Below, piece after piece: positions 47,260 to 52,100 of a stretch of DNA of 52,488 nt; within the stretch, counting starts at the first letter, position 1; every line of letters begins with the position of its first letter. A program made the position numbers and the translations under genes. Where the stretch lies: assembly GCA_014729675.1 (NCBI GenBank), contig WJJM01000005.1, positions 1-52,488 on the forward strand. The letters run 5' to 3'. This DNA comes from Candidatus Woesearchaeota archaeon (GTDB lineage: Archaea > Nanobdellota > Nanobdellia > Woesearchaeales > WJKL01). The notes beneath the pieces are model-generated. The model was given only the letters and a program-made list of their open reading frames with translations, was not told where the DNA came from and searched no databases.

Positions 47260-47431
47260 TTTAGATAAGGAATCGATAAGGTGTTTAAAAACCTTGCGGA
47301 AATGATAAGCTTTTTGGCAGTAATTTCCATGCCTCATCAGCAGGAAATAAAACTTTTTTTTATATCGCCCCATAAGGACAAGATTGTCCCAGATATTTAT
47401 TTCCTAAGTTTATCGTCGGGAAAACGCATAT

Positions 47432-47460
47432 TCCCAGACATTCCCAGCATGGGAATGACA
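47432..47460. promoter_or_regulatory. ATTCCCA site cluster between METTL5-like gene and rpo11
   Basis: ATTCCCAGACATTCCCAGCA followed by TGGGAATGACAA: two direct sites 10 bp apart and one inverted site. The TGGGAATGACAA end is shared with the iteron array at 48.8 kb. It lies downstream of the methyltransferase stop and upstream of the rpo11 promoter. It is probably bound by the same factor as the 11-bp iterons. Confidence 0.5.
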
Positions 47461-47473
47461 ATCTTAAATATTG

Positions 47474-48112
47474 CTAGTTGACTTTCTCCAGTCTCCAACA
47501 CCCCACTTCAATATGCTGTATCTTTTTCCTATGATGCACATAAACATTCTTCAGCGGGAACTCAAATCTCCAGAACCCTTCAACATTGAATCCATTATCT
47601 TTGCTTAACTCTTTGATAAATTTTACACTGTCAGCCTTGTGAAAGCTGTATATAACATCAGCTATTTCCATAGCCTTCACTAAGAACTTCCTGTCTGCAT
47701 GCCTTTCTTTTTGCAGCCCGAAAGGAGGATTCTGGACGACAACATCAACTTCCTCGTCGAAAAGCAAAACATCTTCCTGCAAAAAATCTGTTTTTCTTCT
47801 CAGTTTGATTTCAAATCTGTCCTCGATAATCTTAAGGTTTTCCTTAGCTGTCTGGATAGCATCTTCATCTTTCTCGACGAAAAAAACATGTTTGGCCCCT
47901 AACAGCAATGCACCTATTCCAAGAACACCTGTCCCTGCTCCGAGGTCAGCTATTGTTTTGCCTTCGATCTCTCTTCTAAAAAACGCGTTCCAGAGCACCT
48001 CAGCAGCGATATCCGCCTCTGTAGGATACTGCTCGAGCAGCACCTTAGGCTTTTCAAAACTCTTGAGTGATGACAATACTACTGCCAGCCCTTTTTTTGA
48101 CGAAATTTTCAT
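47474..48112 (-). CDS. METTL5-like N6-adenine RNA methyltransferase
   Basis: A 212-residue Rossmann-fold methyltransferase. LEQYPTEADIAAEVLW is the family start, IADLGAGTGVLGIGALLLGA binds SAM, DVVVQNPPFGLQ contains the N6-adenine NPPF catalytic motif, and HADRKFLVKA follows. It resembles METTL5/Mj0882-type enzymes; human METTL5 modifies 18S rRNA. It is likely an rRNA methylase. GAGGT lies 8 nt before the ATG and is itself part of the first CTCACTTTT-type repeat. TTATAAATA near 48200 may be the promoter, inside the repeat array. Confidence 0.87.
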   Translation of the reverse strand: MKISSKKGLAVVLSSLKSFEKPKVLLEQYPTEADIAAEVLWNAFFRREIEGKTIADLGAGTGVLGIGALLLGAKHVFFVEKDEDAIQTAKENLKIIEDRFEIKLRRKTDFLQEDVLLFDEEVDVVVQNPPFGLQKERHADRKFLVKAMEIADVIYSFHKADSVKFIKELSKDNGFNVEGFWRFEFPLKNVYVHHRKKIQHIEVGCWRLEKVN

Positions 48113-48120
48113 GTCAAGAC

Positions 48121-48620
48121 CTCACTTTTCCAGCACTTATTTTTCTTGATCTCATTTTTTCTGAATTCTTCTCAAGTATATCTCACTTTTTCCAGATATT
48201 TATAACTTTTCATTTCATCCTTATTTTTTCTTCTCACTTTTTCTGATCCTTTCTTTATTGTCTGTTTTTCTCCTCTAAAAATACTCACTTTTTCACCCAT
48301 AATCCTAAAATAACAAATTTATAGATCTTCCTGATAATACTCTATTATATCCAACTCTCACTTTTTTACCATATCTCCCTATATCTGCTTATTCTTTCCC
48401 ATTTTTGCATGTTGACGCTGCACCTAACTCTCACTTTTGCCTCTTTTTACCTTATTTCTTTTGTTTTTAGTGCCATTCTTCTCATATTTACTCTCACTTT
48501 CTGTATATTCTAGCTGATTTCAGCCTTATTTCACCCATTTTCCCTGAAATCAACTCTCACTTTTTGCCAAAATAGCCTTATTTTAGCATTTTTTCACCTT
48601 TTTTACTCTCACTTTCATCT
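48121..48620. repeat. Helically phased CTCACTTTT array in G-poor DNA
   Basis: CTCACTTTT-type motifs begin at 48121, 48182, 48233, 48284, 48357, 48430, 48493, 48556 and 48608. Spacings are 61, 51, 51, 73, 73, 63, 63 and 52 bp, close to 5, 6 or 7 turns of a 10.5-bp helix. The last five copies extend to ACTCTCACTTT. A variant (CTCATTTTTT) at 48151 is about three turns from each neighbour. By hand count, 48121-48600 has 28 G and 121 C on the plus strand. No ORF. The remainder of the gap, 48620-48780, is AT-rich with no clear feature. Confidence 0.85.
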
Positions 48621-48780
48621 ATTTTAAGTCTAAAAATTAGCTTTTTGATTCTATATTTTTGCATAAATCCTCCCCAAAATTTCAAAACCCTGCCTTGCTT
48701 TTTTGATCAAAATTTACAAAGAAAAACAGTTAAACAATATTCATCTCAGATATATTCTGCCTCTTTTTCTAAAATCTTTC

Positions 48781-48835
48781 ATTCCCAAAATATTCCCAAG
48801 ATAGTCCTGGGAATGTCCCAATATTGTCCCAATGG
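48781..48835. promoter_or_regulatory. Iteron array 1: five 11-bp TCCC units
   Basis: The T of TCC(C/T) recurs at 48783, 48794, 48805, 48816 and 48827, exactly 11 bp apart. Best units read ATTCCCAAAAT and ATTCCCAAGAT; the third is AGTCCTGGGAA and the last runs into TGGGAATGACAA. One helical turn per unit suggests cooperative binding of a protein on one DNA face. Confidence 0.8.
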
Positions 48836-48888
48836 GAATGACAAATAAAGCCTAAAAAACTAAAATTTGTCCTCTAAAAACCAAATAT

Positions 48889-48946
48889 ATTCCCAGATAT
48901 AGTCCCAAGATATTCCCAAAATAATCCCATTTTTGTCTTGGGAATT
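48889..48946. promoter_or_regulatory. Iteron array 2: five 11-bp TCCC units before the promoter
   Basis: TCCC or TCTT starts at 48891, 48903, 48914, 48925 and 48936 (spacings 12, 11, 11, 11). Units are ATTCCCAGAT, AGTCCCAAGAT, ATTCCCAAAAT, AATCCCATTTT and GTCTTGGGAAT. The array ends a few bases before the TATA box of the coiled-coil/winged-helix gene at 48986. This is the position of an operator for autoregulation, or of an iteron-type origin with its initiator gene. Confidence 0.8.
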
Positions 48947-48985
48947 AGAAAGATTTAAATAAATAAGAGATATTTTTATTTTAAA
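48947..48985 (+). promoter_or_regulatory. Promoter of the coiled-coil/winged-helix gene
   Basis: GAAAGATTTAAATAAA has a purine-rich BRE-like start and a TTTAAATA TATA box at about 48953-48960, some 26-30 nt before the ATG at 48986. This fits leaderless transcription. The second iteron array ends immediately upstream, so bound protein would touch or block TBP/TFB. Confidence 0.6.
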
Positions 48986-49642
48986 ATGGGAATATTTTCA
49001 TCATTATCACAGAAAGACAGCCATGTTCACAAGCTGCACCAGGCAGTATCATTTGCTTTCCAAAAAGTGAAAGATGACACTTCCCAGATATTCCAATGGC
49101 TGCAGCACTTTCATCAGAAGCAGCAGGATACTGATCAAAGGCTGGCAAGGATTGAAGAACACATAGCCAGCTCTGACAGTCAGGATTCATTAGAGCTAAA
49201 GCAAAGGCTTAGAAAGCTAGAATACCACACACAATATCAGCCTCAGATTTCAAGAGAAGAGATAAGAAGGATAGCTGAAAACTCTGTATCATACGATCAC
49301 ATATTAAGAAAGATTGAAGAGATAAATTTAAGGATAGATACATTAGAAAAGAGGAAATCTGCACAGAGAATAGAGAAAAAACAGTCCATCAAAGACAGGA
49401 TAGTCAAAAAGATAACAAAGAACAGCAAGGATTACATAAAAAGCGTTGTCTTGTCTCTTATCAAGAAATATCAGCAGATATCTGGCTCCCAATTAAGGGA
49501 AATAGTAGTAGAAGAGCAGGGATTGTGCTCAAAATCCTCTTTTTACCGTGCTTTGGAAGAGCTTGAACAATCTTCAGATATAGAGATGATGAAAAAAGGC
49601 AAGGAAAAAACATATGCTTTTAAGACGACGATCCAAAGGTAA
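48986..49642 (+). CDS. Coiled-coil protein with C-terminal winged helix
   Basis: A 218-residue protein. Residues 10-60 are helical with many His/Gln (FQWLQHFHQKQQ); 60-135 are coiled coil (SLELKQRLRKLEYH, RKIEEINLRIDTLEKRK). Basic residues 125-145 lead into a winged helix-turn-helix at about 150-215 (VVLSLIKKYQQISGSQLREI, GLCSKSSFYRALEELEQ). No catalytic motif. The iterons directly upstream make it the best candidate for the iteron-binding protein. The overall plan (oligomerisation coil plus DNA-binding head) suits a partition, origin-binding or regulatory role. It lies first in a plus-strand run. Confidence 0.7.
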   Translation: MGIFSSLSQKDSHVHKLHQAVSFAFQKVKDDTSQIFQWLQHFHQKQQDTDQRLARIEEHIASSDSQDSLELKQRLRKLEYHTQYQPQISREEIRRIAENSVSYDHILRKIEEINLRIDTLEKRKSAQRIEKKQSIKDRIVKKITKNSKDYIKSVVLSLIKKYQQISGSQLREIVVEEQGLCSKSSFYRALEELEQSSDIEMMKKGKEKTYAFKTTIQR

Positions 49643-49700
49643 ATAGAAAAGTTTAAAAACAAGAAGCATTTTGAAATTAATACCAAATGGGGTGGTGGTA

Positions 49701-50240
49701 ATGACAAATTTAGTATTAGACAATAGAGATTCTGCTCTAGCAGAACTAAAAAAACTGACTAAAAACGTCAAGATAGCTTTTTCTGAGGTGCACAACGAAT
49801 TCGAGGATCATCTGGAGGGTATAAATGAAAATACAAACGAGATACAGTCTAATTATGAGTACATCTGTGAGGTAGACAACAAGATATCTAAGCTAAATGA
49901 AAGGATAGATGATATCTACAATGTCCTGTCTAACATCACAGGCAAAAAGCTAAAAAAGATGCCTTCTTATGAGGATATAGATCCTCTAACAACAGAGGAA
50001 AAGAATGTATTTCTTAACCTTTACACAGAGCCAGAGTCCATTTCCTATGTTGAATTGGCTAAGAAGATGAACATGCCAATTTCATTAACAAGGCAGTACA
50101 TAACAAATCTGCTTGAAAAAGGCATACCTATTCAGAAAGAATACAAGAAAACAAGGCCTTTTATCTATCTGGACAAAAAGTTCAAAAACCTTCAGGCAAA
50201 AAAGAATGTTTTGAAGATTGAACAAAAAATATTAACTTAA
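49701..50240 (+). CDS. Second coiled-coil/winged-helix protein
   Basis: A 179-residue protein of the same plan as its neighbour. Residues 10-85 are acidic coiled coil (NEFEDHLEGINENTNEIQS, KISKLNERIDDIYNVLS). A winged helix follows at about 100-165: LTTEEKNVFLNLYTEPESIS, YVELAKKMNMPISLTRQYI, TNLLEKGIPIQK. The tail is basic. The start is at 49701 (MTNLVLD), because GGGGTGGTGG lies just upstream; in-frame sequence before that is the ribosome site itself. It may act with the 48986 product; no direct sequence identity between the two was evident beyond architecture. Confidence 0.65.
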   Translation: MTNLVLDNRDSALAELKKLTKNVKIAFSEVHNEFEDHLEGINENTNEIQSNYEYICEVDNKISKLNERIDDIYNVLSNITGKKLKKMPSYEDIDPLTTEEKNVFLNLYTEPESISYVELAKKMNMPISLTRQYITNLLEKGIPIQKEYKKTRPFIYLDKKFKNLQAKKNVLKIEQKILT

Positions 50241-50735
50241 AACTTTTAAGATTTTATTATTTATTTTATTCTCTATTTTTTCTAAGCTTTGCTTAAAACT
50301 TTTAAATATAGAATATTTTTAAAAATTTGATTATGACTTTTTATTTGCATACATCAATTTATATTTTTAATATTGAAAATAATCAGGATAGATTATACAT
50401 TTAAATCAACCCAAAATGCCTAACTTCTATAACCTTAGAATTAGGGCTTAATATGTTCAAATTCACCCTTTTTAGCCATTTTTATCATTTTTAGTGTAAA
50501 AACTGCGTTTAATGTACCTTAGATGCCGTTTTATGAATCTCTACAGAAAAATGTAAAACTATAATCTAGATCAATGAAATAACACAATTAATTTTCTATA
50601 TTATAAAACATTTAGTTTTTGCTTAATACTTTTATATTCTATTTATTTTAGTTTTTGCTTAAATGTTTTATACGCACTGACCACTGTTCAAGTGTAGGCA
50701 TAATATTTATATATACGAACATCTTTTTACTAATA
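50236..50735. repeat. AT-rich gap with CTTAAAACTTTTAA repeats
   Basis: The gap before the HNH gene holds no ORF. CTTAAAACTTTTAA occurs at 50236 and 50292. Degenerate copies are CTTAATACTTTTAT at 50622 and CTTAAATGTTTTAT at 50658. The last two lie in a 36-bp direct repeat starting TTTAGTTTTTGCTTAA (50612 and 50648). The first copy overlaps the stop of the preceding gene. TTTATATATA at about 50706 is the HNH promoter. The middle (50310-50600) shows nothing else clear. Confidence 0.55.
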
Positions 50736-51221
50736 ATGGAAAGAAATCCTAATCAAAGAAGAATAATAAAATGTGAAGGTTGTGGGGAAGAAAAAGAACA
50801 TCATGCAAAAGAGATGTGTTTGAACTGCTATAGGCGAATTGCATGGAAAAGAAAGAATGTTATCTGTAAAAATTGTGGAAGAAACTTACCCCACAAAGCA
50901 TATGGACTTTGTCAAACATGTCATATTAAGCTGCACCATTATGATAAAGTAAAAGCCCATAATTATAGAAAATGGCATAATGTAGATTTAGATTTATACC
51001 GAAAAATAATTAAAAAATGTCTAATATGTGATTTTGATAAAATTGTTGATTTACACCATTTAGATGGAGATCATAAGAATAATTCTGAAGAAAATCTTAT
51101 TGGATTATGCCCAAACCATCACAAATTACTCCATGATATGCGTTTTAAGGAAGAAACTCAGAAAGAAATAGATAAAAGGCTCAATCCTGAATATTTTAAA
51201 CGCACTTTTCAAAACAATTAA
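50736..51221 (+). CDS. HNH endonuclease with two zinc ribbons
   Basis: A 161-residue protein. Two CxxC pairs form zinc knuckles: CEGCGEE..CLNC and CKNCGRN..CQTC, spaced alike and probably duplicated. The HNH nuclease follows: CLICDF, DLHHLDGDHKNN, ENLIGLCPNHHKLLH, with the metal-binding His and the structural Cys pairs. Such proteins occur as homing-type nucleases or as parts of mobile elements. The ATG at 50736 lies 27 nt after TTTATATATA (leaderless). The nearby recombinase gene suggests a mobile or plasmid-related segment. Confidence 0.82.
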   Translation: MERNPNQRRIIKCEGCGEEKEHHAKEMCLNCYRRIAWKRKNVICKNCGRNLPHKAYGLCQTCHIKLHHYDKVKAHNYRKWHNVDLDLYRKIIKKCLICDFDKIVDLHHLDGDHKNNSEENLIGLCPNHHKLLHDMRFKEETQKEIDKRLNPEYFKRTFQNN

Positions 51222-51251: not shown

Positions 51252-52100
51252 ATGGTGCTCCAAAAACTAGAAACAGAACTAAGGCTAAGAGGATTTTCAG
51301 AAAAGACAGTAAAAAACTATATTTTCTATAATCAAAAATTCTTAGATTTTATAAACAAGCAGCCAGAAGATATCCAAGAAGATGATATAAAATCATTCAT
51401 TGCACATCTGATGTCAGACAAAAACTATAAGCCTGCATCAACAAACTTAGCTATCTGCTCTTTAAGGTATTTCTATGAAAAAGTCCTTGAAAAAGAGATA
51501 TTTACAAAAATAACTCCTCCAAAATCAGAAAAAAAGATCCCTACAGTTCTAACAAAAGAAGAATTGAGCCAATTGTTCAATGCAATAAATAACAAAAAAC
51601 ACAGGATACTATTAGAACTCATGTATTCTTCAGGATTAAGGGTCAGTGAAGCAGTATCATTAAAGTTTGAAGACCTAAACTTAAATGAAAAAGTGGGTAT
51701 TGTACGCCAGGCAAAAGGAAGAAAAGACAGGATCATAATCCTCTCAAATAATACCGTAGACAAACTGGAAAAATATAAGAAAAAAAGAGATAAAAAGAAA
51801 CTATTCCCAGATAATCCTTATATATTCCCATCAAACAAACAAAAAGAATCCCATATGTCTATAAGGCAGGCTCAGAAAGTGATAAATGACGCAGCTAAAA
51901 AAGCAGGCATAAAAAAGAGGGTATTCTGCCATTCATTAAGAAGCAGCTTTGCAACACATCTGTTAGACTCAGGCACAGATATAAGAGTCATCCAGGAATT
52001 GCTAGGCCACTCTAACCTCTCTACTACAGAAAGATACACAAAAGTCTCTACAGAGCAATTAAAGAAAGTAAGATCTCCTTTTGATAATATTAAATTCTAA
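51252..52100 (+). CDS. xerA: XerA-type tyrosine recombinase
   Basis: A 282-residue site-specific recombinase. The N-terminal SAM-like core-binding domain includes LRLRGFSEKTVKNYIFYN. The catalytic domain has Arg in YSSGLRVSEAV, Lys in QAKGRKDRI, His-Leu-Arg in CHSLRSSFATH, His in LLGHSN and nucleophile Tyr in TERYTKVS. Archaeal XerA resolves chromosome dimers at dif, but the same family drives plasmid, virus and integron recombination. No convincing dif site was found by eye in the window. The position next to the iterons and HNH gene makes a plasmid-maintenance origin possible. Confidence 0.9.
   Translation: MVLQKLETELRLRGFSEKTVKNYIFYNQKFLDFINKQPEDIQEDDIKSFIAHLMSDKNYKPASTNLAICSLRYFYEKVLEKEIFTKITPPKSEKKIPTVLTKEELSQLFNAINNKKHRILLELMYSSGLRVSEAVSLKFEDLNLNEKVGIVRQAKGRKDRIIILSNNTVDKLEKYKKKRDKKKLFPDNPYIFPSNKQKESHMSIRQAQKVINDAAKKAGIKKRVFCHSLRSSFATHLLDSGTDIRVIQELLGHSNLSTTERYTKVSTEQLKKVRSPFDNIKF

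What the first reader, a model, noticed from the sequence alone, without database searches (positions are those of the whole stretch)
48121..48620. CTCACTTTT array phased to whole turns of the DNA helix
Nine copies of a short motif are spaced 61, 51, 51, 73, 73, 63, 63 and 52 bp apart. Divided by 10.5 bp these are about 5.8, 4.9, 4.9, 7.0, 7.0, 6.0, 6.0 and 5.0 turns, so the motif nearly always faces the same side of the helix although the spacer sequences are unrelated. The strand is C/T-rich (121 C, 28 G in 480 bp, hand count). Fixed face with variable distance points to a protein that wraps or bridges the DNA, such as an origin, centromere-like or silencing site. It does not match known archaeal ORB boxes or CRISPR.
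Basis: seen in the sequence. Interest (0 to 1): 0.82.

Follow-up and report, generated by a model that had tools for sequence, protein, structure and literature searches.

The report
Helix-phased protein-docking array in nanoarchaea
Many nanoarchaeal genomes carry one DNA site where a short word repeats at whole turns of the double helix, even inside a protein-coding gene, beside genes for two uncharacterised DNA-binding proteins; it looks like a docking platform for organising or segregating the chromosome and has, as far as could be searched, not been described.

Summary
Nine CTCACTTT copies start at 48121-48608, all on one strand, with the stated spacings. In 59 genomes from 21 families of the same archaeal order (Nanoarchaeota), every locus with a relative of the neighbouring coiled-coil/winged-helix gene (wHTH1) has 2-9 same-strand copies. 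Spacings repeat at 10.55 bp with the window's own family left out (best of 3-30 bp scanned), and with one genome per family. The array often runs into the METTL5-like coding sequence: 111 copies versus 16 under synonymous shuffling, none antisense, and none in 17 METTL5 genes of genomes without wHTH1. It persists where METTL5 is lost or broken. A second element lies beside it: two blocks of four or five [G/T]TCCCA iterons at 11-bp pitch (5+5 in the window). In a scan of 288 genomes all 68 iteron hits fall at this locus. The pair keeps its arrangement when wHTH1 is inverted, so it is not simply a promoter operator. In the one complete genome it lies away from Orc1/Cdc6 and the GC-skew origin. 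Best reading: a single chromosomal, centromere-like nucleoprotein site bound by wHTH1 and perhaps wHTH2, working like parC/tubC but belonging to no known partition family. Binding and function are inferred.

The parts
48121..48616 (+). Phased array: nine CTCACTTT copies at 48121, 48182, 48233, 48284, 48357, 48430, 48493, 48556, 48608, all on the + strand (AAAGTGAG in the METTL5 sense). Order-wide consensus AACnCTCACTTTT
   Evidence: consensus of 273 copies; phasing
48617..48780 (.). Spacer between array and iteron blocks; length varies between genomes (42-671 bp) and its phase is not fixed
   Evidence: (gap phase R=0.10, spacer AT 0.68 versus 0.63 for the loci)
48781..48831 (+). Iteron block 1: five 11-bp units starting 48781, 48792, 48803, 48814, 48825 (aTTCCCA / aGTCCTG / tGTCCCA)
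   Evidence: conserved pitch and order-wide uniqueness
48889..48940 (+). Iteron block 2: units starting 48889, 48901, 48912, 48923, 48934 (pitch 12, 11, 11, 11; last unit degenerate)
48950..48963 (+). Probable BRE/TATA promoter of wHTH1 (AAAGATTTAAATAA-like), immediately downstream of iteron block 2
   Evidence: read from sequence; similar AAAGATTTAAATA stretches precede wHTH1 in relatives
48986..49642 (+). wHTH1: 218-aa coiled-coil protein with C-terminal winged helix; candidate reader of the array
   Evidence: wHTH fold of residues 124-218 predicted (pLDDT 78); no Pfam/NCBIfam family
49671..50240 (+). wHTH2: 189-aa coiled-coil plus winged-helix protein, present at 58 of 59 wHTH1 loci and also in genomes without the array
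51252..52100 (+). XerA-type tyrosine recombinase; an Xer relative lies within 4.5 kb at 27 of 49 loci with enough flank (frequent neighbour, not constant)
   Evidence: NF040815, 254 bits, cut-off 220
47474..48112 (-). METTL5-like methyltransferase gene; in many relatives the array continues into this coding sequence

Best explanation
This is a single-copy, bipartite chromosomal protein-docking site that probably works as a centromere-like (partition or chromosome-anchoring) element. SHOWN: the one-strand 8-bp motif, locked to whole helical turns over about 0.5-1 kb, ignoring gene boundaries; the adjacent blocks of 11-bp iterons; one such locus per genome; strict co-occurrence with wHTH1. INFERRED: the wHTH1 winged helix binds each CTCACTTT with fixed polarity, all on one face, and its long coiled coil joins neighbouring protomers into an ordered nucleoprotein structure; wHTH1 or wHTH2 coats the 11-bp iterons, also controlling the wHTH1 promoter where it lies next to them; the assembly marks one place on the chromosome for segregation, anchoring or loading of a chromosome-organising complex. 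The partner motor is unknown.
For: Phasing in independent families. Array present at 59 of 59 wHTH1 loci examined; 17 METTL5 loci from genomes without a strong wHTH1 relative have none in the CDS and only 4 stray sense copies upstream. METTL5 CDS: 111 sense copies against 16.2 expected (max 25 of 300 synonymous shuffles), 0 antisense, the two stop-free frames used equally. Array kept where METTL5 is absent (14 of 59 loci) or broken (G034). The iteron pattern occurs in 26 of 288 genomes, all carrying wHTH1, all 68 hits at this locus, 0 controls. Iteron pitch: pair spacings 11 bp 201, 22 bp 131, 33 bp 97, near zero between. Iterons and array keep their mutual orientation in loci with wHTH1 inverted (G013, G055, G113). 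The most conserved stretch of wHTH1 is its predicted recognition region (EQGLCSKSSFYR), matching the invariant core (243 exact copies, at most 17 of any one-mismatch neighbour). Known centromeres have split blocks of direct repeats (R1 parC, tubC), and TubR and archaeal AspA are winged-helix proteins (PMC5016525, PMC5120986).
Against: No ParA/ParM/TubZ-type NTPase is encoded at the locus, and genome-wide ParA-like or ScpA genes do not track wHTH1. No binding data exist. wHTH1 shows no sequence homology to any known centromere-binding protein. The site is not near the origin in G013, where many bacterial centromeres sit. In most loci the iterons abut the wHTH1 promoter, as an operator would.
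Confidence: 0.5

Rival explanations
1. Long-range regulatory region: wHTH1 binds array and iterons to loop or wrap DNA and so represses or activates its own operon and/or METTL5. No role in chromosome segregation.
For: Iterons lie directly upstream of a BRE/TATA-like wHTH1 promoter in most loci; phased sites are typical of repression loops; autoregulation is usual for DNA-binding proteins.
Against: In the inverted loci (G013, G055, G113) iterons and array sit past the 3' end of wHTH1, away from its promoter, with unchanged mutual orientation. The array runs hundreds of bp through METTL5 and persists when METTL5 is gone or broken. Nine sites over 0.5-1 kb is far more than a repression loop needs.
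Confidence: 0.3
2. Chromosomal replication origin with iterons recognised by an unusual initiator.
For: Iterons plus a slightly AT-rich spacer and a phased array resemble origin architecture; one locus per genome.
Against: In the complete genome G013 sampled GC skew turns from negative to positive near 755 kb, beside cdc6 at 765 kb, and the array is at 437 kb, away from both skew switches. It lies 359, 353 and 109 kb from cdc6 in G068, G113 and G250. Spacer AT is only 0.68 versus 0.63.
Confidence: 0.06
3. Polar replication-fork barrier or an accessory region for Xer recombination, with wHTH1 acting like the terminator protein RTP (winged helix with coiled-coil dimer).
For: Motif is strictly one-strand; XerA-type gene often adjacent; RTP is among weak fold matches; in the four genomes where cdc6 and array share a contig the motif points the way a fork from cdc6 would travel.
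Against: Four genomes prove little (chance 1 in 8 for all agreeing). Array is mid-arm, not at the terminus, in G013. Xer neighbours are missing at 22 of 49 loci. Helical phasing over 0.5-1 kb is not needed for a fork barrier. Known archaeal dif sites are not next to xerA (PMC2958812).
Confidence: 0.06
4. RNA-level signal in the METTL5 transcript (AAAGTGAG in its leader and coding part).
For: Polarity is constant relative to METTL5 wherever METTL5 is adjacent.
Against: Array kept, same polarity relative to the iterons, in 14 loci without adjacent METTL5 and where METTL5 carries stops; helical phasing has no meaning for RNA; no Rfam match.
Confidence: 0.03

Closest known systems
Type II partition site parC with ParR (plasmid R1)
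   Same: Split blocks of direct repeats (ten repeats flanking the par promoter; the 11-bp length is recalled, not tested) beside a promoter and the gene of the presumed binding protein; the window has 5+5 units of 11 bp
   Different: ParR is not a winged-helix protein (recalled: ribbon-helix-helix); the parM actin NTPase is adjacent to parC and absent here; parC has no phased 8-mer array; here the site is chromosomal
Type III partition site tubC with TubR
   Same: Direct repeats in two or three blocks, bound by a small winged-helix protein that also regulates its operon
   Different: No TubZ at the locus; no sequence link; no phased polar array
Archaeal AspA-ParB-ParA (plasmid pNOB8) and SegAB (Sulfolobus)
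   Same: [quoted passage not shown] AspA is winged-helix and spreads along DNA
   Different: Sites there are palindromic; ParA/SegA partners are encoded alongside; no relation to wHTH1 detected by sequence
KOPS of the FtsK/XerCD system
   Same: 8-bp strictly polar motif in the context of Xer recombination
   Different: KOPS are G-rich and spread over whole replichores; here copies are concentrated in one locus of about 1 kb and phased

Membership tests
Type II partition (ParMRC) | Cis site made of tandem direct repeats, in one or two blocks | tested here: met
   Two blocks of four to five 11-bp units
Type II partition (ParMRC) | Actin-like NTPase (ParM) in the operon | tested here: not met
   No NTPase among window 43897-52488 genes or in conserved neighbours
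Type III partition (TubZRC) | Winged-helix centromere-binding protein | tested here: inconclusive
   wHTH1 C-terminus is predicted winged-helix but no specific similarity to TubR, binding untested
Type III partition (TubZRC) | Tubulin-like GTPase TubZ alongside | tested here: not met
AspA-ParB-ParA / SegAB | ParA/SegA-type ATPase alongside the DNA-binding gene | tested here: not met
   ParA-like genes exist elsewhere in most genomes and do not follow wHTH1
Archaeal chromosomal origin (Orc1/Cdc6, ORB) | At the GC-skew minimum and near orc1/cdc6 | tested here: not met
CRISPR array | Near-identical repeats of 20-50 bp with uniform spacers and Cas genes | tested here: not met
   8-bp core, spacers 43-65 bp and variable, no Cas gene among the neighbours scanned
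Any centromere / partition site | Confers stable inheritance when bound by its protein | not testable with these tools
   Needs a plasmid stability or segregation assay

The most novel reading that the evidence does not exclude
A new class of archaeal chromosome-partition or chromosome-organising locus: a coiled-coil winged-helix protein assembled on a polar, helix-phased array that overrides gene boundaries, combined with 11-bp iteron blocks, without a neighbouring ParA/ParM/TubZ motor.
Probability: 0.45. Interest if true: 0.9.

Novelty: new variant of a known kind. Interest (0 to 1): 0.78.

Why it matters
How DPANN archaea move and organise their chromosomes is, to my knowledge, unknown, and the nature of archaeal centromeres is listed as an open question (PMC5120986). 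This site gives a concrete, testable DNA element plus candidate proteins in at least 21 families of one order. It is also a rare case where a DNA-level spacing code (whole helical turns) is visible in comparative sequence, even inside a protein-coding gene, so cooperativity on one face can be tested by 5-bp phase-shift mutants.

Tried and rejected
CRISPR or simple tandem array: rejected. The G130 triple hit is an exact 50-bp tandem unit elsewhere, unrelated. Origin: disfavoured by skew and cdc6; skew of G068 was uninformative. RNA element: no Rfam match and the phasing/METTL5 arguments. Phase link between array and iterons: none. Profile-profile link between wHTH1 and wHTH2: not significant. 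Co-occurrence with ParA-like or ScpA genes: none evident. The whole-protein fold of wHTH1 without relatives was poor (pLDDT 61) and not searched; the C-terminal domain gave only generic winged-helix matches. Profile searches of the PDB with wHTH1 hit only coiled coils. The genome-contig scan found one named relative. A paper search for AAAGTGAG with archaea found nothing; Woesearchaeota with chromosome segregation gave two unrelated papers.

Full report
OBSERVATION. Two of the nine end in C rather than T after the core. Dinucleotide shuffles of the intergenic stretch 48113-48985 average 0.07 copies, never above 3 in 2000. Elsewhere in the 1.44-Mb genome only five scattered CTCACTTTT occur.

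RELATIVES. The genome belongs to an archaeal order whose one nameable member here is a Nanoarchaeota MAG. Searches of relatives with the two flanking proteins showed that the divergent pair METTL5-like / wHTH1 is conserved between families. A profile of wHTH1 finds 62 of 288 genomes of the order at E <= 3e-36, then a clear drop to weaker paralogues; in a phylum-wide sample no strong relative appears outside the order. I read 59 of these loci. Each has 2-9 CTCACTTT copies on one strand beside wHTH1. In 17 METTL5 genes from genomes without a strong wHTH1 relative there is none in the coding sequence and only four stray sense copies upstream, in two genomes.

PHASING. Over 214 successive spacings from 59 genomes the best period between 3 and 30 bp is 10.6 bp (R=0.45); for spacings under 100 bp R=0.65, p about 8e-18 (Rayleigh, not corrected for kinship). 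The histogram has peaks near 42, 51, 63, 73, 84, 94 and 104 bp and empty troughs between. To deal with kinship: leaving out the window's family, 196 spacings peak at 10.55 bp; drawing one genome per family (21 families) gives a median p of 5.5e-6 (95th percentile 3e-4). Intergenic spacings (p 4e-7) and those within METTL5 (p 2e-11) each show it.

CODING SEQUENCE. In 45 METTL5 genes next to wHTH1 the sense motif occurs 111 times; shuffling synonymous codons within each gene gives 16.2 on average and never more than 25 in 300 trials; the reverse complement occurs 0 times. The two reading frames that do not create a stop are used equally. In 14 loci METTL5 is not adjacent and the array remains; in G034 METTL5 carries stops and the array remains. 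The motif is therefore maintained as DNA.

SECOND ELEMENT. Between array and wHTH1 lie two blocks of four or five [G/T]TCCCA units at 11-bp pitch, most often with 33-35 or 55-65 bp between blocks; in the window five plus five units start at 48781, 48792, 48803, 48814, 48825 and 48889, 48901, 48912, 48923, 48934. A strict three-unit pattern occurs in 26 of 288 genomes, all carrying wHTH1, with all 68 matches at this locus and none in the reversed control. In loci where wHTH1 is inverted (clearest in G013, G055, G113) the blocks lie past its 3' end, still next to the array and in the same mutual orientation. The cis elements thus form a unit independent of the wHTH1 promoter.

PROTEINS. wHTH1 is a coiled coil with a C-terminal domain predicted as a winged helix (generic winged-helix matches such as Hop2, BlaI, Fur, PadR, RTP). 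The conserved part is EQGLCSKSSFYR in the predicted recognition region. The array core is equally invariant: 243 exact copies in the stretch scanned, at most 17 of any one-mismatch neighbour. That wHTH1 reads CTCACTTT is inference from this co-conservation and co-occurrence. wHTH2 has the same layout, is present at 58 of 59 loci, and also exists where the array does not. The tyrosine recombinase at 51252-52100 matches the archaeal XerA model; Xer relatives are near in 27 of 49 loci.

ORIGIN TEST. In the closed genome G013 sampled GC skew is mostly negative from about 195 to 690 kb and positive from about 755 kb round to 150 kb; cdc6 is at 765 kb and the array at 437 kb. In G068, G113 and G250 the array is 359, 353 and 109 kb from cdc6. 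It is not the main origin there.

MECHANISM AND STANDING. The best reading is a centromere-like nucleoprotein platform. It resembles parC (ten direct repeats flanking the par promoter) and tubC (repeat blocks read by a winged-helix protein) (PMC5016525) and the archaeal AspA case (PMC5120986). It fails the defining feature of each of these families, an NTPase encoded alongside, so it is filed with none of them. The main rival is a long-range regulatory region. Nothing here shows binding or function; those steps are inferred.

Noticed in passing
window 47385-47455: A small extra group of TCCCA motifs (TTGTCCCAGATATT, ATTCCCAGACATTCCCAGCATGGGAATGAC) lies between the 3' end of METTL5 and the RPB11-like gene, so in this genome TCCCA motifs bracket the METTL5-array region.
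   Followed up: partly
G013, G068, G113, G250: Where cdc6 and the array share a contig, CTCACTTT points away from cdc6 in all four, i.e. along the expected fork direction. Four cases only; the window's own skew would suggest the opposite but is confounded by gene orientation.
   Followed up: partly
L069 4865-5398, L071 4591-5184, L107 4556-5140, L113 594-1145: Some wHTH2 proteins end in a LTLDxFDQ tail reminiscent of a PCNA-interacting motif; absent from most members.
   Followed up: no
L062 3620-4218 (G034): The METTL5-like gene is broken by stops, yet the adjacent phased array and iterons are kept.
   Followed up: partly
L111 4078-4185 (G130): An exact 50-bp tandem unit containing CTCACTTT, far from any wHTH1 relative; unrelated repeat.
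   Followed up: partly
window 50655-51221: HNH-endonuclease-like gene with zinc ribbons between wHTH2 and XerA; also found near the locus in a few other genomes (G015, G033, G267, G271).
   Followed up: partly
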